Origin: Paludisphaera mucosa
Lineage (GTDB): Bacteria > Planctomycetota > Planctomycetia > Isosphaerales > Isosphaeraceae
Assembly: GCF_029589435.1 (NCBI RefSeq)
Contig: NZ_JARRAG010000002.1
Span: 930,001 to 994,000 of the forward strand
DNA length: 64,000 nt
Direction: 5' to 3'
The translations under genes and the position numbers were made by a program. Below the pieces are notes generated by a model, which made no database searches, was not told where the DNA came from, and saw only the letters and a list, made by a program, of their open reading frames with translations. Positions within the stretch are counted from its first letter, which is position 1; each line of letters begins with the position of its first letter. This document shows positions 1 through 24,516 of this stretch, piece by piece.

Positions 1-212
1 CTCGTGATTTTCCGCCCGTTCGAGGGTCTCCGGAACTCGTCGCCATTCGCCCGATCATCGATGACGCTCGCCCGCGCAAGCGATCCCAATATGATCATGG
101 GCCAGGATCGCCGATCTCGAAACAGCGGCCGGGACGAATCGCGGAGATCGCTCGGCTCCTGGGACGCCTCAAGGCGTAGCTCGGATCGTCGCATGCACCT
201 CGGCAGGCCGAA
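1..212. other. left-edge stretch, no gene recognised
   Basis: No reading frame here resembles a known protein and no hairpin terminator stands out. It lies downstream of the minus-strand TolC-like gene that ends at 213. Confidence 0.4.
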
Positions 213-1979: not shown

Positions 1980-2035
1980 CCTTCGGCCCCTCCTCCCCGG
2001 CTCCATCCTCGCCTCTCCCTCGAACCTCGCGACGG

Positions 2036-3670: not shown

Positions 3671-3934
3671 CTCGCCTCCTCTGCCGTCGAATCCGTCCGG
3701 GGGCGGCCCAGGCGTCGCGTTCATCCTTATCGGCGCGGTCAACATTGCGGCTTTAACCCGCCCAGTCGCTCGTGGCCGACCGCATGACGCGCCGGTGCCG
3801 CCCGACGGCTTTCGAGTGGATGGACTCAATCGCGGCTCCCGCCCGATTCCGACGACACGTCCGGCGGCCGTGGGCCGGTCGGACGCGAACTTCGAGCGAA
3901 CCCCCGGCCCGAGGCGGGAGCGGAGACCTTCCGC

Positions 3935-3963
3935 TTGACCAAACAACTGATTGGCTATATAGT
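3935..3963 (+). promoter_or_regulatory. sigma70-type promoter of the efflux operon with candidate ArsR operator
   Basis: TTGACC (3935-3940) is followed after 17 bp by TATAGT (3958-3963), in a locally AT-rich island inside GC-rich DNA, about 120 bp before the adaptor start. Positions 3944-3959 read CAACTGATTGGCTATA, which matches 12 of 16 bases of the element in front of the arsR-like gene (9208-9223, minus strand). The rest of the 3671-4081 gap shows no gene; a promoter for the divergent TolC operon must also lie there but I could not pick one. Confidence 0.6.
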
Positions 3964-4081
3964 TTATTTAGGAATGGGGCCTTGGCGGCCGGGTGGTCGA
4001 GTCGCGACGGCCGCGCCCGCTCGAACTGGAGGTCGAGATGGATCGACCTCGCGGGATGGCTTGGCACGAGGGAGGTGGTCC

Positions 4082-5221: not shown

Positions 5222-8200
5222 TGGGCGAGCGGGATTCAGGGGCCGGCCCGAACGGCGTCGGGCCGAAGCGGCACGATTTCCTCAACGGGATCGTCCACGT
5301 CTTCCTCGACAATAATTTCTCGATCATCCTGATCGTCGTCTCCGTCCTGATCGGCCTGGCGGCCCTGCTGGTGACCGCCCGGGAGGAGGATCCGCAGATC
5401 GTCGTGCCGCTGGCCGACGTCATGGTGAGCATGCCGGGCCACTCGGCCGCCGAGGTCGAACAGCTCGCGGCGAACCCCCTGGAGAAGATCCTCTATCAGA
5501 TCGACGGCGTGGAATACGTCTACAGCATGTCGCGCGAGAACCAGGCCGTCATCACGGTCCGGTTCTACGTCGGCCAGGACCGCGAGCGGAGCCTCGTCAA
5601 GCTCTTCAAGAAGATCAACGAGAACCAGGACGTCATCCCGCCCGGCGTCTCCGGCTGGGTCGTCAAGCCGGTCGAGATCGACGACGTCCCGGTCGTCTCC
5701 CTGACGCTCGCCGGCGAGGAGGGCGACGGCTACGGCCTCAGGAGGGTCGGCGAGGAGGTCGTCCAGCGCCTGTCGGCGCTGCCCGGGGTCTCGCGGGCCT
5801 ACGTCGTCGGGGGCGAGCCCCGCAGGGTGCGGGTCGACCTCGACCCCGAGCGGCTCCAGGCGTACGCCCTCGGCCCCCTGGAGGTCCAGACGGCGATCCA
5901 GGGGGCGAACGTCACCCGTCCCGCCGGCGACTTCACCCGCGGCGACGCGGTCGTCCGGGTCGAGGGGGGCGTCGCGGCCGACCGCCCGGAGCGGATCCGC
6001 GACCTGGTCGTGGGGGTCTTCCAGAACCGCCCGGTCTTCCTCAAGGACGTGGCCACCGTACGCGACGGGCCCAACGAGGCGACCAGCTACCTCCGCCACG
6101 GCTGGGGCCCGGCGCGGGGGTTCGAGGCGCCCGAGGGGTTCCCGGGCGTCGAGGTCGCCGGACGCGGCGGATCCGGTGCGTCCCGACGCGCGACGGCCGG
6201 CGTCGTCGCCGCGAGGCCCGCCGTCACGGTGGCCATCGCCAAGCAGAAGGGGACCAACGCGGTGACCGTCGCGGAGTCCGTCCTCCGCGCGGCCGGGGAG
6301 CTCAGGAGCGACGTCGTCCCTTCGGGCATGGAGCTCGTCGTCACCCGCAACTCGGGGCTGACCGCCGACGAGAAGGTCGACGAGCTCGTCGAGGGCCTGT
6401 GGGTGGCGATCGTCATCGTCATCGCGCTCTTGACCCTCAGCCTCGGCTGGCGCGAGGCGATGATCGTCGCCGTCGCGGTGCCGGTGGTCTTCGGTCTGAC
6501 GCTCGGGGTCAATCTGCTCTTCGGCTACACGATCAACCGGGTGACGTTGTTCGCCCTGATCCTTTCGCTCGGCCTGCTGGTCGACGACCCGATCGTGGAC
6601 GTCGAGAACATCGCGCGGCATTTCGAGATGCGCGGCCGGGCGACGCGGGACATCGTGCTCGAGGCGGTCGCCGAGATCCGCCCGCCCCTGATCAGCGCGA
6701 CGCTGGCGGTGATCGTGAGCTTCCTGCCGCTGTTCTTCATCACCGGCATGATGGGCCCCTACATGGCCCCGATGGCGCTGAACGTGCCGGTGGCCATGCT
6801 GATGTCGATGCTCGTGGCGTTCACCATCACGCCCTGGATGGCCTACCAGGTCCTCCACAAGAAGTTCAACTCGGGCGCCCATGCGGGCCGCCCCCACACG
6901 GACGAGGAGGACCTCGAGGCGCTCCGCCGCACGTTCCTCTACCGCCTGTTCCGACCGATGATGGCCCCCCTGATCGGTTCGCGGCGGGCGGCCTTGACGT
7001 TCCTGACGTCGATCGCCCTGCTCACGGCCGCCGCGACAGGGCTCGCGGCGCTCCGGATGGTCCCCTTGAAGATGCTGCCCTTCGACAACAAGAACGAGTT
7101 GCTGCTGGTCCTCGACTTCGACGAAGGGACCACCCTGGAGCGCGCGAACGCCGCGGTCCGGGAGGTCGAGGCCGAGGTGGCGACGGTCCCCGAGGTCACC
7201 GACTACGTCAGCTACGTCGGCCTCCCCAGCCCGATCGACTTCAACGGCCTGGTCAGGCACTACTACCTGCGGCAGACGCCCCACAACGCCGAGGTCCGCG
7301 TGAACCTGGTCGGCAAGAAGCACCGCGCGGCGCAGAGCCACGCGATCGCCCTGCGGCTCCACGACCGCCTGACCGCGCTCGCCGGCAGGCGCCACGCGCG
7401 GCTCAAGGTCGTCGAACTGCCTCCGGGGCCGCCCGTGCTCGCCTCGCTCGTGGCCGAGGTGAGCGGCCGGCCGGAGCACTCGTACGACGACCTCACGTCC
7501 GCGGCCGCGACGGTCGCCCGGCGGCTCGGGGCGGAGCCGGGGGTCGCGGAGGTGGACGACACGGTCGAGGCCCCCGCCCGGAAGCTCGTGTTCGTCGCCG
7601 ACCAGGAGAAGGCCGCCCTCAACGGGGTCTCCGTCGACGAGATCGCCCGGACCCTCCGCCTCGTCCTGTCCGGCGGCGACGCCGGCACGGTGCGACTCGC
7701 GGGCGAACGGAACCCGCTCCGCGTCGAGCTCCGCCTGCCGCGCTCGCTCCGATCCAGCCGCCAGGACCTGGCGAGCGTGCGGGTCAAGGGCCGGACGGGC
7801 CAGTTCACGGCGCTGTCGGAGCTCGGCGGCTGGGAGGAGACCCGCGTCGACCAGACGATCTACCACAAGAATCTGGAGCGCGTGGTCTACGTGACCGCCG
7901 AGACGCTGGGGCGCACCCCGGCGGAGTGCGTCCTCGACGTGACCTTCGACCGGCGGCCCGACGGGACCTCGCCGACGGGCGCCTCGACGGATCAAGGTTG
8001 GGTGTCCGACGCCGAGCCGCGGAAGCTCTCCGAGCGGACGTTCCTCCGCAACGGCGGAGGCATCCCCTGGGCCGTGCCCGCCGGCGTGCGAGTCGGGTTC
8101 AGCGGCGAGGGCGAGTGGAAGATCACCCTCGACGTGTTCCGCGACCTCGGCCTCGCGTTCGCGGCGGCCATGGTGATGATCTACGTGATCCTCGTGATGC

Positions 8201-8712
8201 AGACGAACTCGTTCCTGATCCCGCTGGTCGTGATGCTCGCCATCCCGCTCACCGTACTCGGCGTGATGCCGGGCTTCTGGCTGCTGAACGCCATGAACGG
8301 GCAGGTCGTCGGCGGGCGCGCCGACCCCGTGCTCTTCACCGCCACGGCCATGATCGGCATGATCGCGCTCGCCGGCATCGTGACCCGCGACGCGATCATC
8401 CTGGTCGATTTCATCGGCCAGTCCGTCGAGAAGGGCCGCCCGCTCTTCGACGCCATCATGGAGAGCCGCGTCGTGCGGATGCGTCCGATCCTCCTGACGG
8501 CGGGTGCGGCGATGCTCTCGAGCATCCCCATCACGCTCGACCCGATCTTCTCGGGGCTGGCGTGGTCGCTGATCTTCGGGTTGTTCGCGTCGACGATCTT
8601 CACCCTGTTCGTGATCCCGGTGTCGTACTGGCTGCTCCACGCCGAGAAATCCGGCGTCGCGAGCCGCCCGCCGGCCGGCTCGCGCGACGTCGGTGCGGTC
8701 GTCGAGCCTTGA
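5218..8712 (+). CDS. RND-family efflux pump, inner-membrane permease
   Basis: 1164 residues, somewhat longer than AcrB-type pumps. Membrane helix 1 lies near 33-55; periplasmic porter domains follow, then helices near 395-540, a second periplasmic half, and the C-terminal helix bundle (about 980-1140). The proton-relay Asp pair of helix 4 is visible as LLVDDPIVDVEN (Asp456, Asp457), which points to the hydrophobe/amphiphile (HAE) branch rather than the heavy-metal branch. A low-complexity Gly/Ala/Arg stretch at residues 294-336 interrupts the first porter region. Tandem ATGs occur at 5218 and 5221; the first gives the ATGA overlap with the adaptor gene. Energy source is the proton gradient by family knowledge; substrate is not predictable here. 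Confidence 0.92.
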   Translation: MMGERDSGAGPNGVGPKRHDFLNGIVHVFLDNNFSIILIVVSVLIGLAALLVTAREEDPQIVVPLADVMVSMPGHSAAEVEQLAANPLEKILYQIDGVEYVYSMSRENQAVITVRFYVGQDRERSLVKLFKKINENQDVIPPGVSGWVVKPVEIDDVPVVSLTLAGEEGDGYGLRRVGEEVVQRLSALPGVSRAYVVGGEPRRVRVDLDPERLQAYALGPLEVQTAIQGANVTRPAGDFTRGDAVVRVEGGVAADRPERIRDLVVGVFQNRPVFLKDVATVRDGPNEATSYLRHGWGPARGFEAPEGFPGVEVAGRGGSGASRRATAGVVAARPAVTVAIAKQKGTNAVTVAESVLRAAGELRSDVVPSGMELVVTRNSGLTADEKVDELVEGLWVAIVIVIALLTLSLGWREAMIVAVAVPVVFGLTLGVNLLFGYTINRVTLFALILSLGLLVDDPIVDVENIARHFEMRGRATRDIVLEAVAEIRPPLISATLAVIVSFLPLFFITGMMGPYMAPMALNVPVAMLMSMLVAFTITPWMAYQVLHKKFNSGAHAGRPHTDEEDLEALRRTFLYRLFRPMMAPLIGSRRAALTFLTSIALLTAAATGLAALRMVPLKMLPFDNKNELLLVLDFDEGTTLERANAAVREVEAEVATVPEVTDYVSYVGLPSPIDFNGLVRHYYLRQTPHNAEVRVNLVGKKHRAAQSHAIALRLHDRLTALAGRRHARLKVVELPPGPPVLASLVAEVSGRPEHSYDDLTSAAATVARRLGAEPGVAEVDDTVEAPARKLVFVADQEKAALNGVSVDEIARTLRLVLSGGDAGTVRLAGERNPLRVELRLPRSLRSSRQDLASVRVKGRTGQFTALSELGGWEETRVDQTIYHKNLERVVYVTAETLGRTPAECVLDVTFDRRPDGTSPTGASTDQGWVSDAEPRKLSERTFLRNGGGIPWAVPAGVRVGFSGEGEWKITLDVFRDLGLAFAAAMVMIYVILVMQTNSFLIPLVVMLAIPLTVLGVMPGFWLLNAMNGQVVGGRADPVLFTATAMIGMIALAGIVTRDAIILVDFIGQSVEKGRPLFDAIMESRVVRMRPILLTAGAAMLSSIPITLDPIFSGLAWSLIFGLFASTIFTLFVIPVSYWLLHAEKSGVASRPPAGSRDVGAVVEP

Positions 8713-8738
8713 CGTGCGAAGCCGGCGGCGCGCACGTC
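8711..8738 (+). terminator. possible hairpin at the end of the efflux operon
   Basis: GACGTGCG (8711-8718) pairs with CGCACGTC (8731-8738), overlapping the pump stop codon. No T-tract follows, so termination is only a guess. Confidence 0.3.
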
Positions 8739-8826
8739 CGTCGTGCACCGAATCAAGGCCGACGACCTGGATCGCGAACTCGCCAACGGCGAGATCATCG
8801 CCCGCCACCGCGCGGCGGGAGCGGTC

Positions 8827-9180
8827 CTAGATCCGTTTCTGCCAGGTCTTGAGGAGCTTGCGGTTGCGATCGACCTCCGCCTGCGCCTCCTCGATGATGT
8901 TGCCGCAGACCAGTCGGCAGAGTTGCTCGACGAGGGGGTCGCCCACCGAGTAGAACACCTGCAGGCCTTCCTTTCGGCGGGAGACCATCCCGGCCTCCGC
9001 CAGCATCTTCAGGTGCTTCGAGACGTTCGCCTGGTTCTGCCCGGTCTCGACGACCACGGCCCCGACGTTCTTCTCGCCGGCCAGCAGGGCGCGGAGGATC
9101 GAAAGCCGCGTGCGGTCGCCCAGCATCCGGAACTTCTCGGCCACACGTTCCAGGAGTTCGTCGGGGATCGCGACAGCCAT
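8827..9180 (-). CDS. ArsR/SmtB-family transcriptional repressor
   Basis: 117 residues, a typical length. The winged helix is clear: FRMLGDRTRLSILRALL (about 17-33), recognition region QNQANVSKHLKMLAEAGMV (about 49-67) and the wing GLQVFYSVGD. The canonical alpha-3 metal site (ELCVCDL) is replaced by NVGAVVVETG without cysteines; the only cysteines are in LCRLVCG near the C-terminal dimer helix, so any metal sensing would use a different site. It converges on the pump operon and is the obvious candidate regulator of it, supported by the shared element in both promoters. The ATG at 9180 is fixed by homology; its ribosome-binding site is weak. Confidence 0.9.
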   Translation of the reverse strand: MAVAIPDELLERVAEKFRMLGDRTRLSILRALLAGEKNVGAVVVETGQNQANVSKHLKMLAEAGMVSRRKEGLQVFYSVGDPLVEQLCRLVCGNIIEEAQAEVDRNRKLLKTWQKRI

Positions 9181-9207
9181 GGAGCCCGCTGAATATCCGT
9201 TTGGCAG

Positions 9208-9223
9208 TATAGGAAATTGGTTG
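9208..9223 (-). promoter_or_regulatory. candidate ArsR operator/promoter of the repressor gene
   Basis: On the minus strand this reads CAACCAATTTCCTATA, sharing CAAC..ATT..CTATA with the efflux promoter at 3944-3959. It overlaps a -10-like TATACT. No good -35 hexamer was found. Autoregulation by the ArsR-type protein is inferred from the shared element. Confidence 0.45.
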
Positions 9224-9852
9224 TTCTACGAATAATAGCACGGCGTCCCGCGCTGTCCAGGACGGGACGAACGGGGAATCGTCCCGAAACGCGACATCGA
9301 TTCGATCATGCGTGGAAGCTTGATCGATGGATCGAACCCGATTGCGACGCGGTCGCCTCGACCTGGCAAGGAAGCACCCGCACACGCCGGCCCAAGAAAA
9401 TTCAGATCGATCATGTATACAAATATGAAATCCATGACTTCGTTCCGGAGTTCCGCGTCCGGTTCGCCACGAATGGAGCGGCCCCAACACCCGAAACCCC
9501 GATTGTCATCGACCGTCTGAAATTGGTCCCCCCGCACTGGCGTCGGACCGACGTCGCGTCGGGCCTCTGCCTCGCGAGATCGCCGGCGCCATGCCGTTTC
9601 GCGCCCCGACGGGCGATGAATCCTGGCGCGTCCCCCTCGGCGATCGATCTCCCACCGGGTTACTGTGCAGTCGTGGAACGAGAAGCGGGGGCGGGGCGAT
9701 GTACGGCGACGAACACCGGAGTGGGCTGGCCGCGGACGACGTCCCGGTCGACCGCCTGCCGCGGTTCGTCGAGGGCGCCGGCTTCCTCGCCGAGCGGACG
9801 GGGCCGGGGCCCAGCGCGATCCCTCGACGGCCGTGTCCAAAGGAAAGAGCTG
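9224..9852. other. gap between arsR and cas3, no certain gene
   Basis: 9220-9530 is noticeably AT-richer than its surroundings. From 9699 a plus-strand frame (starting MYGDEHRSGLAADD) has GC-rich third positions like real coding DNA, but it runs into cas3 in the wrong frame and resembles nothing I recognise; it may be a gene remnant. No CRISPR-type repeats are present. Confidence 0.35.
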
Positions 9853-12241
9853 ATGTCAGCCATCAGGACGACCTGGTACGCCCAGACCCTGAAGGACATG
9901 GCCCCGGAACATTGGCAGCCGTTGATGGAGCATCTGCGATGCGTGGCCGAGCTGGCCTCGGCCCACGCGTCCGCCTTCGACTCGTGCGAGTGGGGGCGGA
10001 CGGCCGGTCTCTGGCACGACCTGGGCAAGTACGCGGTCGACTTCCAGGACTACCTCCTCGGCTCCGCGGCGGCCCCCGGCCGTCCTCGACGCTTCGGTCG
10101 TCGACGGCCGCCCGGGACGGGTCGACCACTCCACCGCCGGGGCCGTCCACGTTCTCGAAGGCTGCGCCGGCCGCCTCGTCCGCCAGGGCGAGCTGCCCCC
10201 GGCCGAGGCGGCGTTGGCGATGCTCGTCGCCGGCCACCACTCGGGCCTGCCGCCGAAGTTGAACTTCGAGCCCGAACGGCTGACCAGGGCCGAGAAGAAG
10301 ACCCGCCTCGACGAGGCCTGTCGCGGCGGCGGGGCCGAGATCGCCGCCCTGCTCGGGCACGCCTTGCCGGGTGCTCCCGCGACGCTGCGCCCGGAGGCGC
10401 TCGCGGCATGGACCGGCCGCGAGCGCCTTCAAGAGTCCCTCCTGCGGCACGAATTCTGGACCCGCATGCTCTTTTCGGCCCTGATCGACGCCGACCGCCT
10501 CGACACCGAGCGGTTCAAGGATCGCGAGCGGGCCGAGGCGCGCCAGGCGTCGAAGGCCGGGGCGGACATCCTGAAAGAGCTTCGTGAGAAGCTCGGGCGG
10601 CGGCTGGAGGCGGTGTCCCGGGCCGCGCACGTGCGTACGGCCGCGCTGCCCGATGCGGCCCGGGCGCGGGCCGAGGCGGTCCTCAAGCTTCGGGCCGACG
10701 TGCTGGCCGCCTGCCGTCGCGCCGCCGAGCGCATTCCTGGGCGACACTCCCTGACCGTCCCCACCGGCGGGGGCAAGACGCTGTCGGCCCTCGCCTTCGC
10801 CCTCGACCACGCGATCCGCCACGACCTGCGCAGGGTGATCGTCGTCATCCCCTTCACGAGCATCATCGACCAGACGGCCGCGGTCTACCGCGAGGCGTTC
10901 GGGGATGCGGGGGAAGGGATCGCCCTCGTCGAACATCACAGCAACCTCGAGCCGTCGCGGGACACCTACGAGAACCGTCTGGCCTCGGAGAACTGGGACG
11001 CGCCCGTGATCGTGACGACGAGCGTCCAGTTCTTCGAAAGCCTCTTCTCCGCCCGCGGGACCGCCGCGAGGAAGCTGCACAACATCGCCCGGAGCGTCGT
11101 GGTCTTCGACGAGGTCCAGGCCCTGCCGCACCACCTCCGGACCCCGATCTTCGACGTCCTGAACCGGCTCGTCGACCATTACGGCGTCTCCGCCCTGTTC
11201 TGCACCGCGACCCAGCCGGCCCTCGAACTGGCGAGGAGCAACCGACGGGCGTTCCCGAACCTCCCCGGGGTGGTCGAGGTCGTCGACGACGTCCAGGCCG
11301 CCTTCGACGCCGTCAAGGAAAGGGTCGAAGTCGACTGCTCGCGAGCCCTCGATCCGACGACCTGGGAGGACCTGGCCGCAGAGCTTCGGGAGCCGGGCCG
11401 GGGACGCGTCCTCGTGATCGTCCAACGTCGCGACGACGCCCGCGCGCTCTGCGAACTCCTGGGACCCGGCGCGTTCCACCTGTCGGCCCTGATGTGCGCG
11501 GCCCATCGCCGCGAGGTCCTGGCGCGGATCGCCGGGGCCTTGCGAGGCGGGGGGGCCTGCCGGGTGGTCAGCACGACTCTCGTCGAGGCCGGCGTCGACC
11601 TGGACTTCCCCGTCGTCTACCGCGACCTCGGGGGCGTGGACGCCCTGGCCCAGGCCGCCGGCCGCTGCAACCGCGAGGGGCGGCTCGCCGACGAGCATGG
11701 CCGTCCGATCCCGGGGAGACTGATCGTCTTCCGCTCCCCCTCGGAACCGCCCCCCGGCCTGCGTCCCGGCGACGATACGACCGCGAGCCTCCTCAGGGAG
11801 CAAGAGGGCCGGCTCGACCTTTTCGATCCCTCCACCTACCGCACCTACTTCTCGCGTTACTTCGCCGACGTCACTCCCGACGCTCTCAAAGTGATGGAAG
11901 CCCGCCTCGCCCGCGACTTCCCCGAGACCGAGATACGCTTCCGCATGATCGATGACCAGGGCCGGGCGTCGATCGTCGTCCCGTACGGCGACGCCGCCGA
12001 GCGGGTCGAAGCCTACCGCTGCGCGCCCTGCCGATCGACGCTCCGCGACCTACAACCCTACATCGTGGACGTACCGCAATCGCAATTCACGACGCTCGTC
12101 CGCGGAGGCGTGATCGAGGCCATCCACGACCAGGTGAACTGGCTCGTCGCCATCGGCCCCCAGTATCACCCCACGTTCGGCCTGGAGGTGGAACGAATCA
12201 TTCCGGCCGATCCCGCGAGTTTGATCACTTCGCAAGATTGA
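9853..12241 (+). pseudogene. cas3: CRISPR-associated helicase/nuclease Cas3, frameshifted
   Basis: Cas3 is the HD nuclease plus SF2 helicase that degrades DNA bound by the type I effector. The start at 9853 follows an AGGAAAGAG site. The first frame carries WHDLGKYAVDFQDYLLG (HD motif); at about 10058-10080, in a C-rich run, the frame shifts by one and continues with GRVDHSTAGA (second HD histidine) through to 12241. The helicase core is otherwise complete: Walker A PTGGGKT (about 10758-10780), VVFDEVQALP (about 11098), CTATQP, and motif VI QAAGRCNREG (about 11650). About 796 residues if repaired, a normal size for the subtype I-C-like family. It is followed directly by a region in which cas5, cas8 and cas7 would be expected but are absent. 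Either a true pseudogene or a single base error; the neighbouring wreckage favours decay. Confidence 0.8.
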
Positions 12242-12517
12242 AAATCTCAGAAAACTCCGCGATGCCCTGTATATCGAACCAGAGATTGCTAGCCTGGCCG
12301 CAAGAGCGTATCCATCACCGCATGATTCGAGGCGTCAACGCCTTCCCGGGATGACGGAGCGACTAGGATTGCGGTCGAGACGATGAGAGATTGCTGCGCG
12401 ATGCGGACAGGATTCTTCACCTGATATGCGTTCCAATTAGCTTGACGGCAAAGCCAGCCTCTCGGCTGTAGGTCATGGTGGGAGTTCGTCGACCCATCCC
12501 CGTCCGAGGGGACCGCC
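12242..12517. other. deletion scar between cas3 and cas4
   Basis: In type I-C-like operons cas5, cas8c and cas7 lie here; instead there are 276 bp with no recognisable gene, lower GC than the flanks, and no CRISPR repeat. It looks like filler left after loss of the effector genes. Confidence 0.5.
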
Positions 12518-12988
12518 ATGAAGTCATGGCTCGACCTGGATGCGTCCTGGGAACCTGGCTGGGCCCGACGGTCGATGCGGGATCTCTTTGAATGCGAGGA
12601 GTTCCGGCGGGAGTTCCCCGTCGAGTACAAACGGGGCCGCCCCAAGTCCCGCGGGGCCGACGAGGTGCAGTTATGCGCCCAGGCGATGTGCCTGGAGGAG
12701 ATGCTGGGCCTGGACGTCCCCCGCGGCTCCCTCTTCTACGGCGAGACGCGCCGCCGCAAGCCGGTGGAGTTCACGCCCACGCTGCGATCGCGCGTCGAGG
12801 AGGCCGCGCGGCGATGCCGCGAGCTGTTCGACTCCCGGACCACGCCCCGGGTGGCGCGTCACAAGGGCTGCGACCGCTGCTCGCTCCTGGAGAGCTGCCT
12901 GCCCGAGGTGACGGGACGACCCACCGCCTCGCAGCCCGGCGCGACGGCCCAAACCCATTACGTTGAACTCCCGGAGGACGCCCCTTGA
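12518..12988 (+). pseudogene. cas4: Cas4 nuclease, N-terminally truncated
   Basis: From about 12605 the frame is clearly Cas4: FPVEYKRGRPK (RecB-type motif with the catalytic Lys), ADEVQLCAQAMCLEEM (QhxxY-like region), GSLFYGETRRR, and the C-terminal iron-sulfur cysteines in CDRCSLLESC (about 12868-12897). Cas4 proteins normally have some 85 more N-terminal residues, with the first cluster cysteine and active-site residues; here they are replaced by an unrelated 30-residue leader. The first ATG is at 12518 but lies in that leader. The stop (TGA 12986-12988) overlaps the TTG start of cas1, the normal coupled arrangement. In a working system it trims prespacers with Cas1-Cas2; this copy should be inactive. 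Confidence 0.8.
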
Positions 12989-13400
12989 GCAGCTACCACA
13001 ATACGCTCTACGTGACGACGCCGGGCGCCTACCTGGCCAAGGACCACGAGAACGTCGCGGTGCGGGTCGAACATCGGACCTGCCTGGAGGTCCCGATGCA
13101 CCACCTCGGCGGCGTGGTCTGCTTCGGGCCGGTGTCCGCCAGCCCCGAGCTCGTGGCCGCCTGCGTCGAGCGCGGGATCGGGTTCTCCTTCCTCGACGTC
13201 AACGGCCGATTCCCGGCCCGCGTCGAGGGCGAGGAATCGGGCAACGTCCTGCTCCGCCGCCGCCAGTACCGCCTCGCCGACGACCCGAGGGCTTCGGCCG
13301 GCCTGGCCCGATCGTTCGTCTTCGGCAAGGTCGCCAATTGCCGGGCCATGCTCGTGCGTTCCGCCCGCGAGCAGGCCGAGCCCCTCGCGGCCTTGCGCGA
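12985..13400 (+). pseudogene. cas1: Cas1 integrase, N-terminal third only
   Basis: It starts at a TTG overlapping the cas4 stop. About 135 residues match the N-terminal beta domain and linker of subtype I-C-type Cas1: NTLYVTTPGAYLAKDHENV, CLEVPMHHLGGVVCFG, ERGIGFSFLDVNGRFPARV and SGNVLLRRRQYRLADDP. Similarity ends between about 13385 and 13412, where sequence encoding a type I restriction subunit begins in another frame. The catalytic C-terminal domain (Glu, His and Asp metal ligands), cas2 and the array are missing. The frame itself stays open beyond the junction but encodes nothing Cas1-like. It is a dead remnant. Confidence 0.85.
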
Positions 13401-15230
13401 CGCAGCAGCCCGAATTCCACGCCTGGATCTTCAGCACCATGCAGTTCATCTTCGCCGGCAACGACACCTCCGGCCTCCAGCACGGCACCGTCCCGACGCC
13501 CGAGAAGTTCTTCCCGAGATGGAAGGAGGACGAGGCCGACGACGGCGGATGCAAGCTGGACAAGTACCTGCGGAAGATGTGCCGCGAGGACCGGCTCGTC
13601 GAGCTGATGCACGACTTCGTCCTGTTCGACGGCGGCGTCAAGAAGGTCCCGCGGGTGCACCAGTACTTCGGCGTCAAGGCCGCCCAGGAGCACGTCCGCC
13701 TGAGGAAGGGCGGCATCGTCTGGCACACGCAGGGCAGCGGCAAGAGCATCGTGATGGTGCTCCTGGCCAAGTGGACCCTCGAGAACGACCCCGAGGCCCG
13801 CGTGGCGGTCGTGAACGATCGCGACGAGCTGGACAAGCAGGTCGAGGGCGTCTTCGCCGCCGTGGGCGAGGAGATCTACCGCACCGGCAGCGGGCGCGAC
13901 CTGATGAAGCAGCTCGGCCTGGCGAGGCCGCGGCTCCTCTGCTCGCTCGTGCACAAGTTCGGCAAGCGGGGGAAAAGCCCGACCAGGAGTTCGACCAGTG
14001 CTTGAAGGACCTCCAGGAGCAGCCGAGCCTCACGGTCGGCGAGGACTTCGTGTTCGTCGACGAGTGCCACCGCACCCAGAGCGGCCGGCTCCACAAGGTG
14101 ATGAAGGCGATGACGCCCGACGCCGTATTCATCGCATCGGCTTCACCGGTACGCCGCTCTCGAAGACGGACCGGGAGACGAGCCTTGAGGTCTTCGGCGG
14201 CTACATCCACACCTACGAGTTCAGCGAGGCGGTCGAGGACGAGGTGGTGCTCGACCTCGTCTACGAGGCGCGGGACATCGATCAGAATCTGGGCTCCCAG
14301 ACGAAGATCGACGCCTGGTTCGAGGCCAAGTCGAAGGGCCTGAACGACTGGCAGAAGCTCGAGCTCAGGAACAAATGGGGCACGATGCTGCAGGTGCTGA
14401 GCTCGTAGTCGCGGATGGACCGCGTGGTGGCGGACGTCGTCTTCGACTTCAAGGACCTGTTCAAGAAGGTCGAGAAGGCGATCGCCGTCTACCCCTCCGA
14501 GCTGGACCGCAGCGCCGGCGGCTCCGACCCGGAAGTGCTGCTGCAGGACCGCCTGACGAAGGGCAAGGAACGCCTCGACGGCGCCATCGAGGCCCTCGAG
14601 TTGCTCCGCGAGCCGATCGATCGACCGAAAGGCGACCTCGAGCACATCCATTGTTTCTGCGGCAACACCGAGGTGCCGACGGACCTGAAGGACCGCGAGC
14701 CCCAGCGGGCGGCCCTGTACAAGGCGACGGTCTTCCTGCTCCGCTCCTACTCCAACATCGCCGACGAGTCGTCGGGCGCCGGCTACACGGACGCGGAGAT
14801 CGCCCGCATCCGGGGACGACTCGACCATTACCTGAAGGTGCGCGAGGTGGTCCGCCAGGCGAGCGGCGAGGTCCTCGACTTCAAGCCCTTCGACGCCGAC
14901 ATCGAGGCGTCCGAGCCGCGGAAGATCTCCCCCTTCGACGGCATCGGGCTTTTGGACCTCATCGTGAAGACCGGGATCGCCGACGCGATCGCCCAGCAGT
15001 TGTCGGGGCTCAAGGGGAACTCGACCGCGATCGCCGAGACGATCGAGAACGACGTCCGGAGCACGATCGTCAAGAAGCAGCTCACCGACCCGGCGTCCTA
15101 CGCGCGGATGTCGAAGCTGCTCGACGAGATCATCTCCGCCCGCAGGGCGAGGGCCGTCGAGTACGAGGAGTACCTGAGGCGGATCGCGGAGCTTGTGAAG
15201 AAGGTGGACGCCGGGCGGTCCGAGCGATCC
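13385..15230 (+). pseudogene. hsdR: type I restriction enzyme HsdR remnant, multiply broken
   Basis: HsdR is the translocase/nuclease subunit of type I restriction enzymes. Matching sequence begins abruptly at about 13405 (QPEFHAWIFSTMQFIFAGND), so the whole N-terminal nuclease domain is lost. The frame changes near 13978 and again near 14137. Helicase motifs survive: WHTQGSGKS (13723-13749), VFVDECHRTQSGR (about 14050-14088) and FTGTPLSK (about 14143-14166). An in-frame TAG interrupts it at 14406, between LQVLSS and SRMDRVV. At about 14450 VFDF joins directly to KDLFKKVEKAIAVY, skipping about 140 residues of the second helicase domain. At about 14900 FDAD joins IEASEPRK, dropping roughly 8 residues. 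The C-terminus stops against the YcaQ-like gene. No hsdM or hsdS is present. Confidence 0.85.
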
Positions 15231-16388
15231 TCACGCAGTCGAGACGACGATCCGTTCGAGTCCGAGCCAAGCTGCAATCGCCTGCAGCTCCTGGGCGAGT
15301 TCGTCCCGAGTCTCGGGCGGCGCGTCCGGCTCGAGGTGCACGGCGTGGACGAGCAGGCTCGACGTCGCCCGATCGCCTTTCAGGTCGACGCGTCCGACGA
15401 GCCGCTCTCCCAAAAGGAACGGCAGCACGTAGTAGCCGTACCGCCGCTTCTCCGCCGGCGTGTAGATCTCGATGCGGTATCGGAAGCCGAACAACCGCTC
15501 CGTGCGCGCCCGCTCCCAGACGAGCGGGTCGAAGGGGGCCAGGAGCGCCCGGGCCTCGATCCTTCGCGGGCGTCGGGCGTCCTTGTGGAGGAAGGCGGCC
15601 GTCCAGCCCGGGATCCTGACCGGCCGAAGCGTCCCCTGCTCCACGAGCGCGGCGATCGCGCGAGCCGCGTCGGCGGGGCGGAGCCGGAAGTAGTCGCGGA
15701 GCTCGATGGACGTCGCCACTCCCAGGGCCCGGGCGGAGAGCTCGACGAGACGGCGTTGCGCCTCCGCCTCGTCCGGCGTCGGCAGCGTCGAGATCTCGGC
15801 GGGGATGACGCGCTCGGCGAGGTCGTACACCCGCTCGAAGCTGGGGCGGCGCGTGGCGGTGGTGATGCGGCCCGCCCAGAACAGCCACTCGAGCATCCGC
15901 TTGGACTCGCTCCACTCCCACCAGCCGGTGCGGCTCCGCTCGAAGTCGGACGCCGAGAGCGGCCCTTCCTCCCTGATGCGGTCGAGCACCCGCATGGCCT
16001 CGGGCCGCCTCTCGCCGGCGAACACCCGAATGCCCTGATATCCGGCCTCGCCCCGATCCGCGCGCGCCATCCGCCACCGGAGCAGGGGATGGAGCGAGAG
16101 CGGCAGGAGCGAGGCCTCGTGGGCCCAGTACTCGAACAGCCGCCGTTCTCGCGGGCGGCCCCACGCCGCGCGGTCCAGGAGCGATCGATCGTAGCCGCCC
16201 AGCCGCGAGAAGGCGGGCAGATAGTGGGCGCGGGCGAGCACGTTGACGCTGTCGATCTGGTGAAGGCCCAGCCGTCCTATGGTGCGTTGGAGGTGGCGGC
16301 CGTCGGCCCGCTCCGGCCTCGGCGCGCCGAAGCCCTGGGCCGCGAGGGCGATGCGCCTGGCTTCGGCGAGGCTCAGGTGATCATTCAT
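15231..16388 (-). CDS. YcaQ/AlkX-like winged-helix DNA glycosylase
   Basis: 385 residues. The HTH_42/YcaQ family excises bulky or crosslinked alkylpurines. Visible family features are LHQIDSVNVLARAHYLPAFSRLG, containing the QxD motif regarded as catalytic, YDRSLLDRAAWG, RLFEYWAHEASLLPL, WWEWSESKRMLEWLFWAGRIT and the C-terminal FDPLVWERARTERLFGF and RVDLKGDR blocks. It starts at ATG 16388 (MNDHLSLAEARRIAL); a 27-residue upstream extension to 16469 is in frame but not family-like. It is divergent from DNA polymerase IV, a plausible damage-response pairing. Its stop codon touches the end of the hsdR remnant, so the left side of this gene marks the edge of the decayed island. Confidence 0.85.
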   Translation of the reverse strand: MNDHLSLAEARRIALAAQGFGAPRPERADGRHLQRTIGRLGLHQIDSVNVLARAHYLPAFSRLGGYDRSLLDRAAWGRPRERRLFEYWAHEASLLPLSLHPLLRWRMARADRGEAGYQGIRVFAGERRPEAMRVLDRIREEGPLSASDFERSRTGWWEWSESKRMLEWLFWAGRITTATRRPSFERVYDLAERVIPAEISTLPTPDEAEAQRRLVELSARALGVATSIELRDYFRLRPADAARAIAALVEQGTLRPVRIPGWTAAFLHKDARRPRRIEARALLAPFDPLVWERARTERLFGFRYRIEIYTPAEKRRYGYYVLPFLLGERLVGRVDLKGDRATSSLLVHAVHLEPDAPPETRDELAQELQAIAAWLGLERIVVSTA

Positions 16389-16583
16389 CGGTCGAGATGC
16401 GCCTCGCGGTCGGGTGGGACTCGTGCACGTGAACGGGGCCGTCGTGATTTTTCGTACACGGGTGGACATCCATGTGGTAGATTCCTAAAAAGTCTAACTC
16501 ATGGTCGCGACGATTCGACACCGCCGGCGCCGTTTCTCCGGCGGGCCGACCGATCCTGGTCGTCGAGTTCGAGGGGCGTGAAC

Positions 16584-17669
16584 GTGGTCAGGGCTGAACG
16601 GCGGCGGAAGATCATCCACATCGACATGGACGCCTTCTACGCGTCCGTCGAGCAGCGCGACGATCCGGGGCTCCGCGGCAGGCCCGTCGCGGTCGGCGGC
16701 TCGCGCGAGCGCGGCGTCGTGGCGGCGGCGAGCTACGAGGCGCGCAAGTTCGGCGTCCGGTCCGCCATGCCCTCGGTCACGGCGAAACGGAAGTGCCCGG
16801 GGCTCATCTTCGTGAAGCCGCGGTTCGACGTCTATCGGGCGGTGTCGCAGCAGATCCGCGCGATCTTCGCCGAGTACACGCCCCTCGTCGAGCCCCTCTC
16901 GCTCGACGAGGCCTATCTCGACGTCACCGAGAACCTGAAAGCGATCGCTTCGGCGACCGCGATCGCCGAGGAGATCCGCGCGAGGATCCGCGCCGAGACC
17001 GGCCTGACCGCGTCGGCCGGCGTCTCGTACAACAAGTTCCTCGCGAAGATCGCGTCGGACGAACGCAAGCCCGACGGCCTGTTCGTCATCACGCCGAGGC
17101 GAGGGCCGGCGTTCGTCGAGGGCTTGCCCGTGGGGAAGTTCCACGGCATCGGCCCCGTGACGAGGGCGAAGATGGAGGCGCTCGGGATCCGGAACGGCGG
17201 CGACCTGAAGGCCCGGACCTCGTCGTTCTTGCAGGAACACTTCGGCAAGGCGGGGCCGTATTACTTCCGGCTCGCCCGGGGCGTCGACGACCGCCCCGTC
17301 TCCGCCGACCGCGTCCGCAAGTCGATCGGCGCGGAGACGACGTTCGGCGCCGACCTCTTCACGGCCGAGGAGGCGCGCGCCGCGATCGAGCCGCTCGTCG
17401 GCAAGGTCTGGTCCTACTGCGAGGCCTCGACGCTCCGGGGGCGGACGGCGACGCTCAAGGCCAAGTACGCCGACTTCCGACAGGTCACCCGCAGCCGCAC
17501 GGTCGACGCCCCGGTCGCGTCGCGGGCCGTGCTCGAGGAGATCATATCCGCCCTCCTCGAGCCCCTCTTCCCCGCCGGCAAGGGGATCCGCCTGCTCGGC
17601 GTGACGTTGTCGTCACTTGAAGTCGACTCGGAGCCCCGCGACGGTCGGCAGCTCCGACTGCCGCTCTGA
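16584..17669 (+). CDS. dinB: DNA polymerase IV (Y-family translesion polymerase)
   Basis: 361 residues, normal for DinB. Catalytic motifs: HIDMDAFYASVEQRD (Asp14, with Phe18-Tyr19 in the steric-gate region) and PLSLDEAYLDVT (Asp108, Glu109). They are followed by the thumb helix-hairpin-helix (KFHGIGPVTRAKMEALGI) and the little-finger domain ending in LLGVTLSSLE. A C-terminal beta-clamp peptide is plausible at the RQLRLPL end. GTG at 16584 is chosen because GAGGGG lies about seven bases upstream; GTG at 16578 is too close to it. Role: low-fidelity extension past lesions such as alkylated bases. Divergent from the YcaQ-like gene across 195 bp. Confidence 0.93.
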   Translation: MVRAERRRKIIHIDMDAFYASVEQRDDPGLRGRPVAVGGSRERGVVAAASYEARKFGVRSAMPSVTAKRKCPGLIFVKPRFDVYRAVSQQIRAIFAEYTPLVEPLSLDEAYLDVTENLKAIASATAIAEEIRARIRAETGLTASAGVSYNKFLAKIASDERKPDGLFVITPRRGPAFVEGLPVGKFHGIGPVTRAKMEALGIRNGGDLKARTSSFLQEHFGKAGPYYFRLARGVDDRPVSADRVRKSIGAETTFGADLFTAEEARAAIEPLVGKVWSYCEASTLRGRTATLKAKYADFRQVTRSRTVDAPVASRAVLEEIISALLEPLFPAGKGIRLLGVTLSSLEVDSEPRDGRQLRLPL

Positions 17670-17975
17670 GCCCGGCCGGTCGGTCCGACCCCGCCGTCTC
17701 AATCGCCTCGTACGCCGCAATGCAGCAGGCGAGCGACGACCGCAGGCTCTCCGAGAGGAGGACGAAGCCCACGTCGCGACATCGGACGTCGGCTTCGACA
17801 GTCCCGTTTCCGGGGGTTACGAGGGTCGCGGGCCCGGCCGGGTCGCCGCGGGCGCCGGGACCGAATCCCCGCGGATGGGGCCCGCGACGGCGCCTGCGAA
17901 ACCTGCAAGAGCCTACGCAGCGTCCATCCGAGACATCGCGCTGGTCACGGCGCCGGCCGCCCCGGACCCTAATGT

Positions 17976-18253
17976 TCAGCGCGGACGCCCTCGCCCGACG
18001 GCCAGGCGGCGGGCGACTCCGCCGGCCCGGGCGGCCAGCCGGGCGTGGGCCTCCACCTCGCTCGCCCGCTTCCCCTGGAGGCGGTACCATTCCAGCAGGC
18101 GCCTGACCCCGTCGATCAGCTCGGGCGATTCGTCCCCCCGATGGATATCGACCGATGGAGCAGACGGCCGTCCACTTCGGCCGCGTACCGAACGACCCGA
18201 ACGCGGCGGCCGCGGGCCTTCTCGTGGACCAGCGTCCCCCGGGCGAGGCGGCC
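17976..18253 (-). pseudogene. short decayed frame downstream of the nitrilase gene
   Basis: Immediately after the nitrilase stop the minus strand reads GTLVHEKARGRRVRVVRYAA, continuing to HRSISIGG, then meets a stop. Adding one base at a run of six G (near 18136-18142) would join it to ELIDGVRRLLEWYRLQGKRA and on to a stop at 17976. Composition and the single lesion suggest a frameshifted small gene, but I do not recognise the family. The 17670-17975 stretch to its left shows nothing I can assign. Confidence 0.3.
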
Positions 18254-19102
18254 TCAGACGCCGCGATAGCCCCGGGCCTCCAGGGCCTCGGCGATCGCGG
18301 TCCCCCGGGCGATCGGGGGCCGGGGCGAAATCTCCACGTCCACGAGCGCCTCGGCCCGCTCGCCGTACGGGCCGCGGGCCAGGACGACGCCGCCCGGCCC
18401 CATCGCCAGCGAGCGGCCGATGACCTTGCGGCCGCTCCAGGGGCCGCCCGAGATCCGGCCCACGTTGCTGACGCCGACGACGGCGACGTCGTAGAGGCGG
18501 GCCAGCTCGGCGTAGGAGTCGAGCCAGAGTCCCCCGTAAGGTTCGCGATCCTCGTCGTGGTCGGCGTCCACCGCCCAGGCCGAGGGCGAGAGGATGACCT
18601 GCGCCCCCATCCGGGCGAGGACGTGGCCGATCGCCAGCGAGCGGCCGAAGTTGTCGGCGCAGATCGCCAGGCCGATCGTCCCGAGGTCCGTCTCGACGAC
18701 GCCCAGCCGATCGCCGACGGCGTAGAGGCCCAGGGCGACGTCCAGCTCGTTGATCTTGCGGTGGTGCAGCAGGATCCGGCCCTCGGGCCCGATCAGCACG
18801 GCGGCGTTGTACAGGCGGTCGCCCGCGCGCTCGACGAGCCCGGCGGCGACGTGGATGCGGTGCTCACCTGCAGCCTGGGCCAATCGCTCGGCGTGGGGGC
18901 CGGGGATCGCCCGGGCCAGATCGCGCGCCGACGGGTCGGTCCAGCCCAGGTCCAGGCATTCGGGCAGGACGACCAGCCGGCATCCCCGGGAGGCGGCCTC
19001 GCCGACGGCCCGGACGGCCCGGCCCAGGTTGGCGTCGGGCCGTCCCCCCTCGACCAGGATCTGGGCCATCCCGGCGCGAAAGCCTCGCTGGGCCGTCTCC
19101 AT
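18254..19102 (-). CDS. nitrilase-superfamily carbon-nitrogen hydrolase
   Basis: 282 residues. The catalytic Glu-Lys-Cys triad is in place: LPECLDLGW (Glu48), HHRKINELD (Lys116) and AICADNFGR (Cys148). The family hydrolyses amides (carbamoyl-putrescine or omega-amidase type) or nitriles; the substrate cannot be read from sequence, although AICAD(N) and the plain single-domain length favour an amidase. The start at 19102 has GGGAGG 9-14 bases upstream; a longer in-frame extension to 19255 is not conserved in character. Cytoplasmic, monocistronic apart from the decayed frame behind it. Confidence 0.88.
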   Translation of the reverse strand: METAQRGFRAGMAQILVEGGRPDANLGRAVRAVGEAASRGCRLVVLPECLDLGWTDPSARDLARAIPGPHAERLAQAAGEHRIHVAAGLVERAGDRLYNAAVLIGPEGRILLHHRKINELDVALGLYAVGDRLGVVETDLGTIGLAICADNFGRSLAIGHVLARMGAQVILSPSAWAVDADHDEDREPYGGLWLDSYAELARLYDVAVVGVSNVGRISGGPWSGRKVIGRSLAMGPGGVVLARGPYGERAEALVDVEISPRPPIARGTAIAEALEARGYRGV

Positions 19103-19358
19103 GGTCCCCGTCGCCTCCCCATGGTTCCGATCGCACGTCGATCCGGCTTCGACCCTCACCGTAATCGGGCCGGGCGACCAGGGGAAGGCCCTATGCGATC
19201 TTCCTGCTTCCCTCCCCGTCCCGGCGGGACGACCGGCGCCCTCGCTTCGCCGCACGACGGTCCCGGATTTGCTTCAGGAAGGTTAAGCTTCTTGAAAACG
19301 ATCGAGACTTCCACAAACCAGGGGATCGCGTCCCGCTCTTCAAGCAGGTGGTCACGCC

Positions 19359-21368
19359 ATGGCCGAAGGCCCGGATGATGAGGACCCCTCGGTCGGCGAG
19401 GTCCTGGAACTCGCCCAGAGCGTCATCGCCATCGTCCGCGAGCCGCTCGTCATCCTCGACGCGGACCTGACCGTCGACCAGGCCAACGACGCCTTCTACG
19501 AGGCGTTCGGCCTGGAGCCGCGGTCCGTGGAGGGCCGGCTCATCTACGACCTCGGCGATCGGCAGTGGGACATCGAGGAGTTGAAGACCCTGCTTGAGGA
19601 CGTGCTGCCGGGCGATTCCTCCGTCAAGGACTTCGCCGTCGAGCACGACTTCGGCCGCCTCGGCTTCAAGACCATGCTCCTGAACGCGCGGAAGCTCCAC
19701 CGGGACGGCAGGAAGATCCTGCTGGCCATGGAGGACGTCACCGACCGCAGGCGGGCCGAGCGGGATGCCGGCCGGAGCCGGGAGCTGCTGGACGAGACGA
19801 CCCGATTCTTCGCCGAGACGCTGGACGCCCTCGCCGGCCACATCGCCGTGCTCGACGAGCGGGGGGTCATCCTCTTCGTGAACGCCGCCTGGCGTCGGTT
19901 CGGCGAGCAGAACGGCCTCGTCGGCGACGGTTCCGGGGTGGGACGGAACTACCTCGACTCCTGCCTCCCGGCGCCGGGCTCGCCGGCCGAGGACGGCGGG
20001 ACCGTCGCGGGCATCCTGGACGTCATCGAGGGCCGGCGCGACGACTTCGCCTGCGAATACCCGTGCCACCCGCCCGGCGGATGCCGCTGGTTCACGATGC
20101 GAGTCAGCCGATTCGTCAGGCCGGGCCCGGTGCGCGTCGTCGTGGTCCACGACGACGTCACGGAGCGGCGGCGGGCCGAGGCCGCCGTGCGCGGCGCCCG
20201 GGACGAGGCCGAGGCCGCCAACCGCATGAAGGACGACTTCCTCGCCACGCTCAGCCACGAGCTGCGCACGCCGCTGAGCGCCATCCTGGGCTGGGCGAAG
20301 ATCCTGAAGTCCGGCCGCGTGGGCGAGGAGCATATCCAGGAGGGCCTGGCCGTCATCGAGCGCAACTCGGTCGCCCAGGCGCGGATCATCGAGGACATCC
20401 TCGACGTCTCGCGGATCGTCTCGGGCAACCTCCGGATCGAGGCCCAGCGGGTGCGCGTCCAGGACGTCGTCGAGGCGGCCGTCGCCGCCGCCATCCCGGC
20501 GGCGACCGCCAGGGGGGTGGACCTGCTCAGGATGATCGATCCCCTCGCGGCCCCGGCGATCGGCGACGCGTCGCGGCTGCAGCAGGTCGTCTGGAACCTG
20601 GTCTCCAACGCCGTGAAATTCACGCCCGAGGGCGGCTCGGTGCGGGTGTCGCTGGGGCGGGTCGACTCGCACCTCGAGATCAAGGTGGTCGACACCGGGA
20701 TCGGCATGAGCGAGGATTTCCTGCCCCACGTCTTCGACCGCTTCCGCCAGGCCGACTCGAGCACGACGCGGCGGTACGGCGGCCTCGGCCTGGGCCTCGC
20801 GATCGCCAGGCAGCTGGTCGAGCTGCACGGAGGGTCGCTGAAGGCCGAGAGCCCGGGCGAGGGCCGGGGATCCGCCTTCACCGTCTCCCTGCCGATCGCC
20901 GCCGTGAATCCGGGGCGGCCGACTCCGCCCGAATCCGCGCCGAAGCCGCGGGGCGGGGCCGAGGGACTCTGCAAGGACCACATGCTCGACGGCGTGCGCG
21001 TCCTCGTCCTGGACGACGAGCCCGACGCCCGGCACCTGATCCATCGCGTGCTCTCGGCCTGCCGGGCCGAGGTCGCGCAGGCGGCCTCGGTCCGCGAGGC
21101 CCTCGAACTCGTCGAGTCGTTCCGCCCCGACGTCGTCGTCAGCGACGTCGGGATGCCCGACGAGGACGGATACGACTTCATCCGTCAGGTGCGCTCGAGA
21201 CGCTCGCCCAAGGAGCTGCCGGCGGCCGCGCTCACGGCCTTCGCGCGGCCCGAGGACCGCAGGCGGGCCCTGTTCGCCGGGTTCCAGACCCACGTCGCCA
21301 AGCCGGTCGACCCGGAGGAGCTGCTGGCCGTCGTCGCCAGCCTCGCCGGCAGGACGCAGACCACCTGA
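19359..21368 (+). CDS. hybrid sensor histidine kinase with PAS domains and receiver
   Basis: 669 residues, apparently cytoplasmic because there is no signal or membrane segment. Domains: PAS (about 15-135), second PAS-like domain (about 145-275), HisKA with phospho-acceptor His300 (SHELRTPLSAILGW), HATPase with N-box NLVSNAVKF, G1 DTGIGM and G2 GGLGLGLAI (about 400-520), and receiver domain (about 545-665) with acidic pair LDDEPDA, phospho-acceptor Asp596 (VVVSDVGMPDEDGY) and conserved Lys in HVAKPVD. Asp596 would receive phosphate from His300. The first segment (MLLNARKLHRDGRKILLAMEDVT) is CheR-associated-PAS-like. No response regulator gene is adjacent; output would be through a partner elsewhere. 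Confidence 0.9.
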   Translation: MAEGPDDEDPSVGEVLELAQSVIAIVREPLVILDADLTVDQANDAFYEAFGLEPRSVEGRLIYDLGDRQWDIEELKTLLEDVLPGDSSVKDFAVEHDFGRLGFKTMLLNARKLHRDGRKILLAMEDVTDRRRAERDAGRSRELLDETTRFFAETLDALAGHIAVLDERGVILFVNAAWRRFGEQNGLVGDGSGVGRNYLDSCLPAPGSPAEDGGTVAGILDVIEGRRDDFACEYPCHPPGGCRWFTMRVSRFVRPGPVRVVVVHDDVTERRRAEAAVRGARDEAEAANRMKDDFLATLSHELRTPLSAILGWAKILKSGRVGEEHIQEGLAVIERNSVAQARIIEDILDVSRIVSGNLRIEAQRVRVQDVVEAAVAAAIPAATARGVDLLRMIDPLAAPAIGDASRLQQVVWNLVSNAVKFTPEGGSVRVSLGRVDSHLEIKVVDTGIGMSEDFLPHVFDRFRQADSSTTRRYGGLGLGLAIARQLVELHGGSLKAESPGEGRGSAFTVSLPIAAVNPGRPTPPESAPKPRGGAEGLCKDHMLDGVRVLVLDDEPDARHLIHRVLSACRAEVAQAASVREALELVESFRPDVVVSDVGMPDEDGYDFIRQVRSRRSPKELPAAALTAFARPEDRRRALFAGFQTHVAKPVDPEELLAVVASLAGRTQTT

Positions 21369-21698
21369 GGCGCCGAACGATGGGAGGCCCTCGCGCCCGC
21401 ATCGTCCGTCGTGGAGGTTCGGCCGCCGATCCGGGGCGGGACCGTCGCGTCGCCGGGTGCGCCGACCCCTTGCTCCGCCGGGCCGACGCCGCCCACGGCT
21501 GCGGCGGCGGGATCTCGCCGACCTCCTGCACGGCGTCGCCGCCCCTCCCGGGTCCTTCGAGCCGAAAGGGCTGATGCCCGTCGCGCCCGCCCCCGGCGAC
21601 GTCGTGGGCGGCGGCCTGCTCCTGGGGGGCGACGAGGGGACGGTCGAGATCCGGGTGAGCCTCGCGACCCCTTCGAGGTTCGGGGGCGGGCCGCGCGG
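21369..21698. other. gap between two convergent histidine kinases
   Basis: 330 bp. A plus-strand frame at 21572-21725 has coding-like composition but no family I recognise. No strong hairpin with a T-tract was seen. Confidence 0.35.
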
Positions 21699-24146: not shown

Positions 24147-24516
24147 GACGGTGAGTCTTGCACTGGTACGGGCGGATGCCCATTCGCCCCGTCGTGGACG
24201 ACGGCCTCCTCCGCGAGGTCCCTCAAGCCGCTCGGAACAGTATAAAGCGCGAGCCCTCGTCGGCGACAGATTTCGGCCCGGGTCCCGTTCCGCGCTCGCG
24301 GGGCGTCACGGCGGGGACTCCTTCACGGAAGCCGCGACGGCGCGACGCGACGAGCCGGGTGACGACGAATCCCCTCGACCGCCGACTTGCTCCCGCCGAC
24401 GGGCGGGCCGGGCGGGAGCGGCGGCGGAAGAACGTCGAGCCGGCCTCGGGCCTCGGGCCCGGACCCTCGGCGACTCGAGGCGTGACCGCCCGCGAGCCCG
24501 CCCCGGGCGACGTCCG
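24147..24516. other. upstream region of the PAS kinase, no gene seen
   Basis: 370 bp, GC-rich. It contains the possible -10 noted for the kinase and nothing else recognisable. Confidence 0.35.

What the first reader, a model, noticed from the sequence alone, without database searches (positions are those of the whole stretch)
12985..13412. cas1 fused head-on to the middle of a type I restriction hsdR
The first third of a subtype I-C-like Cas1 (from NTLYVTTPGAYL to about LVRSAREQAEPL) ends between about 13385 and 13412, and the very next bases encode HsdR residues (QPEFHAWIFSTMQFIFAGND) in another frame. This is a single recombination junction between two defence systems that deleted the Cas1 catalytic domain, cas2, the CRISPR array and all of hsdM/hsdS and the HsdR nuclease domain. 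It captures a defence island that once held both systems side by side.
Basis: partly seen in the sequence, partly recalled or inferred. Interest (0 to 1): 0.72.

Follow-up and report, generated by a model that had tools for sequence, protein, structure and literature searches.

The report
Decayed CRISPR and restriction gene remnant
In this planctomycete bacterium the leftovers of a dead CRISPR system run directly into the leftovers of a dead restriction enzyme gene, a genuine-looking but ordinary example of how spare bacterial immune genes rot away by deletion.

Summary
The junction is in the sequence. Window 12985-~13400 encodes residues 1-138 of a subtype I-C Cas1. From ~13403, one frame over, comes HsdR from about residue 170. 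Both lie on the + strand, so the join is head-to-tail, not head-on. It is one of several lesions in a 5.4 kb wreck (9871-~15228). cas3 is frameshifted; cas5, cas8, cas7 and the first 94 residues of cas4 are lost; cas1 is cut before its catalytic domain. hsdR has two frameshifts, a TAG stop, an in-frame ~483-bp deletion at a short shared sequence, and a lost 3' end. No cas2, array, hsdM or hsdS remnant was found. The same genome keeps a complete second I-C operon with a 47-repeat array, so the lost copy was probably redundant. The postulated ancestor (cas operon, array, hsdM, hsdS, Schlafen gene, hsdR on one strand) was not seen in sister genomes. One planctomycete contig shows that order, with another Cas subtype and an hsdR that is itself cut. 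Codon counts hint at relaxed constraint on the cas3 and hsdR pieces, not on the cas1 piece, and are mixed. Nothing points to misassembly, but no reads were available. Best reading: a pseudogenised defence island. Ordinary, low interest.

The parts
9871..12241 (+). cas3 (subtype I-C type) pseudogene: HD part 9871-10068 in one frame, remainder 10076-12241 in another; the second part is still an open frame of 675 aa
   Evidence: tblastn of the intact own-genome Cas3; PADLOC Cas3c E 8.9e-168
12242..12607 (.). about 370 bp of unassigned sequence where the intact own-genome operon has cas5, cas8, cas7 and the 5' part of cas4 (about 5.2 kb)
   Evidence: blastn against own intact operon: 12145 maps to L047:5524 and 12614 to L047:10747; no second copy in own genome; Cas5c, Cas8c and Cas7c of L047 (profiled) do not match the window
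12608..12988 (+). cas4 3' part (residue 95 onwards of 215; 5' part lost)
   Evidence: tblastn; PADLOC Cas4c E 1.1e-43, 91-201 of 229; Pfam Cas_Cas4
12985..13400 (+). cas1 5' part, subtype I-C, residues 1 to about 138; C-terminal domain lost
   Evidence: 82% aa identity to own intact Cas1, 79% to G032
13393..13409 (+). cas1/hsdR junction; at most a few bases of shared sequence
   Evidence: blastn of the two closest cas1 genes ends at 13393 and 13403, of hsdR relatives starts at 13403-13409; base-level alignments
13403..14408 (+). hsdR middle part (from residue ~170), Walker A-like GSGKS kept (motif read by eye); frameshifts near 13960-13975 and 14133-14136; TAG at 14406
   Evidence: tblastn pieces in three frames; alignment to G032 hsdR
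14409..15228 (+). hsdR C-terminal part after an in-frame deletion of ~483 bp (relative to G032) at a short shared sequence around 14440-14453; 3' end lost next to an AlkZ-like gene
   Evidence: blastn offsets L051 3310/3782; alignments; PADLOC PDLC03044 683-955 of 1034

Best explanation
The region is the wreck of a defence island: a second, redundant subtype I-C CRISPR-Cas operon followed on the same strand by a type I restriction-modification operon, taken apart by several independent deletions and point lesions. The cas1/hsdR join is one of those deletion junctions. Shown here: the two homologies, the breakpoint, the same strand, the additional lesions and the complete second I-C operon in the same genome. 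Inferred: that the two systems once lay side by side in the order cas...cas1-cas2-array-hsdM-hsdS-(Schlafen gene)-hsdR, that one illegitimate deletion from inside cas1 to inside hsdR made the join, and that the remnant no longer works.
For: Profile matches of the pieces. Sharp breakpoints against intact relatives. Independent lesions on both sides of the join. Own genome has an intact I-C locus: cas3, cas5, cas8, cas7, cas4, cas1, cas2 and 47 repeats; its cas1 is 82% aa identical to the piece. Silent versus amino-acid-changing codons in three-sequence comparisons: cas3 remnant 34:43 against own intact copy 54:25 (Fisher p 0.0035); hsdR remnant 21:34 against G032 42:15 with G041 as third sequence (p 0.0003). 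One planctomycete contig (G147:C75, which contains L063 = JACPPF010000120.1 letter for letter) shows cas operon, short repeat array, N6-methylase, specificity subunit, Schlafen AlbA_2 protein and HsdR on one strand. 64 of 80 related hsdR loci carry hsdM on the same strand.
Against: Codon counts are mixed. The cas1 piece shows no excess of changing codons (16:4 against 20:6, p 1.0). With G018 as third sequence the hsdR shift is weaker (34:37 against 29:15, p 0.08). Some intact genes are as skewed as the remnant: cas3 of G032 57:56; the hsdR C part of G041 23:24 and of G018 24:38; these are the third sequences, whose branches are longer, so the comparison is not even. Side-by-side arrangement is rare: 1 of 80 related hsdR loci has any of nine Cas queries in the held flank (up to 10 kb, many shorter). 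Of 20 class genomes with listed places for both genes, 1 (G147) has them within 20 kb, with another Cas subtype. In G147 the hsdR is itself cut: HsdR-like only to about profile position 460, then unrelated sequence and stops within about 130 bases of the contig end.
Confidence: 0.87

Rival explanations
1. The join is an assembly chimera of two unlinked loci.
For: No reads are available here; the window lies in a 5.27 Mb contig of a 9-contig assembly of unknown method.
Against: The hsdR part has no second copy in the genome; the only other close cas1 is 82% identical at protein level, too different to be confused; cas3, cas4 and cas1 pieces keep operon order; both sides carry independent damage.
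Confidence: 0.05
2. The two systems were never neighbours: a decaying cas operon and a decaying hsdR were brought together by a rearrangement (translocation or insertion) at this plastic site.
For: Sister genomes hold the two genes apart; the AlkZ-like gene next to the hsdR end was found in none of the 5 other genus genomes, so material may have been exchanged at this site.
Against: Same strand, and the order expected from a cas-then-hsd island as on G147:C75; the two pieces abut with no extra DNA between them.
Confidence: 0.25
3. A functional fused or repurposed protein: the 452-aa frame starting at Cas1, or the 675-aa Cas3 frame, is made and used.
For: Both frames are open; the cas1 piece shows no excess of changing codons.
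Against: After the junction the Cas1 frame is mostly out of register with hsdR, and intact hsdR genes of relatives have wrong-frame open runs of 156-529 codons in the same offset; cas3 has lost register with its HD part and its codon counts differ from the own intact copy.
Confidence: 0.03

Closest known systems
Truncated type I-B CRISPR-Cas loci of Bacteroides fragilis (PMC5704556; passages read)
   Same: A deletion removes most cas genes and leaves truncated cas1; other CRISPR systems remain in those strains.
   Different: There cas2, cas6 and an array survive and the deletion runs from cas1 to cas5; here the array is gone and the join is to a restriction gene.
Type I-C CRISPR-Cas operon at G000:C1, about 845-858 kb (own genome, L047)
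   Same: Same subtype and gene order; cas4-cas1 81% and cas3 73% DNA identity to the remnant.
   Different: All seven cas genes are present as open frames and an array of 47 repeats follows.
G147:C75 planctomycete defence contig
   Same: Cas operon, short array, hsdM, hsdS, Schlafen AlbA_2 gene and hsdR on one strand.
   Different: Fused cas4-cas1 and Cas_TM1802/GSU0054-type genes, not I-C; the cas operon is not joined to hsdR. Its hsdR is also cut, near the contig end, and its GSU0054-type match is partial (245-439 of 552).
Defence genes gained and lost at high rates, with frequent multiple events in one locus (PMC5379612; abstract and section list read)
   Same: Fits a locus with repeated losses.
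   Different: A statistical survey, not this locus.

Membership tests
Functional type I-C CRISPR-Cas system | Intact cas3, cas5, cas8c, cas7 | tested here: not met
   cas3 frameshifted; own-genome Cas5c, Cas8c and Cas7c do not match the window at E 0.01
Functional type I-C CRISPR-Cas system | Complete cas1 with C-terminal catalytic domain, and cas2 | tested here: not met
   cas1 stops at residue ~138 of 343; no cas2 match. That the catalytic residues lie in the lost part is from recall
Functional type I-C CRISPR-Cas system | CRISPR array | tested here: not met
   no tandem-repeat row between 7990 and 25826; best window match to the own-genome I-C repeat 24 of 37 bases, to the G029 repeat 21 of 32
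Subtype I-C as origin of the cas pieces | Best profile matches to I-C models | tested here: met
   Cas1c, Cas4c, Cas3c are the top PADLOC matches
Functional type I restriction-modification system | HsdR with nuclease and complete helicase, plus HsdM and HsdS | tested here: not met
   HsdR starts after the N-terminal domain and has frameshifts, a stop and a 483-bp deletion; no hsdM, hsdS or Schlafen-gene match in the window. That the nuclease motif lies in the lost N-terminal part is from recall
Type I HsdR as origin of the hsdR pieces | Match to hsdR profiles | tested here: met
   TIGR00348 and PDLC03044

The most novel reading that the evidence does not exclude
The deletions were made by CRISPR itself: the resident I-C system on C1 once targeted a now-lost part of this island and its Cas3 chewed through cas1 to hsdR (that Cas3 makes long deletions repaired at microhomologies is from recall). 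The remaining spacers give no support: of the 46 spacers of the C1 array none has a convincing match in the window (longest exact matches 15 bases; best partial matches 22 bases with 2 mismatches and 28 with 4). But the target would lie in the deleted DNA.
Probability: 0.03. Interest if true: 0.5.

Novelty: new member of a known kind. Interest (0 to 1): 0.12.

Why it matters
It documents loss of a spare CRISPR-Cas and restriction island in a planctomycete while an intact copy of the same CRISPR subtype persists elsewhere in the genome. It is a useful caution for defence-gene annotation, since profile scans (Cas1, Cas3c, Cas4c, HsdR) ring on a locus that is very probably dead. It does not change any mechanism.

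Tried and rejected
Repeat-mediated deletion: among the 20 direct-repeat families shown (of at least 60) for 8500-16800, none lies at the cas1/hsdR breakpoint; this says little, because the partner copy would have been deleted. A repeated element filling 12242-12607: no second copy in the own genome; no other search for mobile elements was made. Self-targeting spacers: no convincing match. Arrays or repeat fragments in the window: none found. Conserved synteny of the flanks in the genus: the AlkZ-like gene was not found in the 5 other genomes, and the 16500-24500 and 1-9200 stretches match only piecewise (the list was cut), so no empty site was identified. A first screen of the 80 hsdR loci with I-C Cas1, Cas2, Cas4 and Cas7 alone gave 0 hits; it missed the contig of G147, which the wider screen found. 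Literature: three searches; abstracts and section lists of PMC5379612 and PMC5398294 and passages of PMC5704556 were seen, the rest only as search listings. I did not search the literature for this exact junction.

Full report
What is there. The window is G000:C2:930001-994000 of an 8.2 Mb, 9-contig genome. A genome of the same genus, G032, is the record 'Planctomycetales bacterium 71-10' (its contig C128 is identical to L060 = MKTT01000128.1), so this is a planctomycete. Window 12985-13410 encodes the start of a Cas1 of subtype I-C. From 13403 on, one frame over, the DNA encodes HsdR from about residue 170. Comparison with intact cas1 (own genome and G032) and with intact hsdR (G032, G041, G018) places the change at about 13400-13405. 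Both are on the + strand.

The join is not alone. cas3 is split by a frameshift at 10069-10075. Between the cas3 stop (12241) and cas4 residue 95 (12608) the intact own-genome operon has about 5.2 kb with cas5, cas8, cas7 and the cas4 start; here there are about 370 unassigned bases (identities of the intact genes). hsdR is read in three frames, has a TAG at 14406, and lacks about 483 bp relative to G032 at a short shared sequence near 14440-14453. It also lacks its last ~80 residues, ending within about 20 bases of the end of an AlkZ-like gene on the other strand. That gene was found in none of the 5 other genus genomes.

Redundancy. A complete I-C locus with 47 repeats lies at G000:C1, about 845-858 kb. 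Its cas1 is 82% identical to the piece and its DNA 73% (cas3) and 81% (cas4-cas1) identical, so it is a divergent copy, not a recent duplicate. The hsdR stretch 13395-15230 has no second match in the own genome.

Decay. Codons that differ in one of three aligned sequences were split into silent and amino-acid-changing. cas3: remnant 34:43, own intact 54:25 (p 0.0035), but G032 (third sequence) 57:56. cas1 piece: remnant 16:4, own 20:6 (p 1.0), G032 16:12. hsdR with G041 as third, N part then C part: remnant 10:16 and 11:18, G032 16:6 and 26:9, G041 20:10 and 23:24; summed remnant against G032 p 0.0003. hsdR with G018 as third: remnant 13:14 and 21:23, G032 10:5 and 19:10, G018 21:10 and 24:38; summed remnant against G032 p 0.08. 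These are simple counts, not a fitted model; the third sequence has the longer branch. Codons with stops or gaps were dropped, and the hsdR stretch 13961-14438 was not counted. I take them as a hint only; the case for decay rests on the lesions.

Was it one island? In the family search 24 of 45 genomes (own included) matched the Cas1 piece and 13 of 45 the HsdR piece. Of the 5 other genomes with a close hsdR (over 50% identity), 3 have cas1 on another contig, 1 more than 1 Mb away and 1 none. In 397 class genomes, 37 hsdR places in 36 genomes passed E 1e-100 and 160 genomes had cas1 at E 1e-30. The cas1 place list was cut: 20 genomes had listed places for both genes; 3 more (G183, G190, G359) had both genes but no listed cas1 place, and further cas1 copies may be unlisted. 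Of the 20, one (G147) had them within 20 kb, 14 kb apart. G147:C75 carries, on one strand, fused cas4-cas1, a TM1802-type gene, cas7, cas5, cas3, a partial GSU0054-type match, six repeat copies, N6-methylase, specificity subunit, Schlafen AlbA_2 protein and HsdR. That HsdR frame holds HsdR sequence only to about profile position 460 and then unrelated codons and stops near the contig end, so it too is cut or misassembled there. Of the 80 best hsdR loci kept from 176, 64 have hsdM on the same strand and 1 (the same contig as G147) has any of nine Cas queries, by its cas3, in the held flank. So the proposed ancestral layout exists but is rare, and it was not found for I-C here.

Verdict. Very probably a decayed defence-island remnant whose cas1/hsdR join is one of several deletions. 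Known kind of event: deletions leaving truncated cas1 are described in Bacteroides fragilis (PMC5704556, passages), and defence genes are lost often with multiple events per locus (PMC5379612, abstract).

Noticed in passing
window 1-3823: 92% identical copy on contig C5 of the same genome (C5:85006-88837, minus strand): a duplication.
   Followed up: no
window 18249-19187: 97% identical copy at G000:C2:1725978-1726925, overlapping a gene that looks like a nitrilase-type protein (name by eye, not profiled).
   Followed up: no
window 4146-9182; G029:C9:43980-48949: The RND-type pump (named by eye) and ArsR-type regulator next to the cas3 remnant have relatives in G029 about 11 kb downstream of that genome's own I-C cas1, beyond a 52-copy repeat array.
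   Followed up: partly
L047:27-1401: The intact I-C operon lies just downstream of a cluster of 14 tRNA genes (ARAGORN).
   Followed up: partly
window 15234-16469, minus: AlkZ-like DNA glycosylase (Pfam AlkZ-like, E 4e-73), not found in the 5 other genus genomes, abutting the broken hsdR end.
   Followed up: partly
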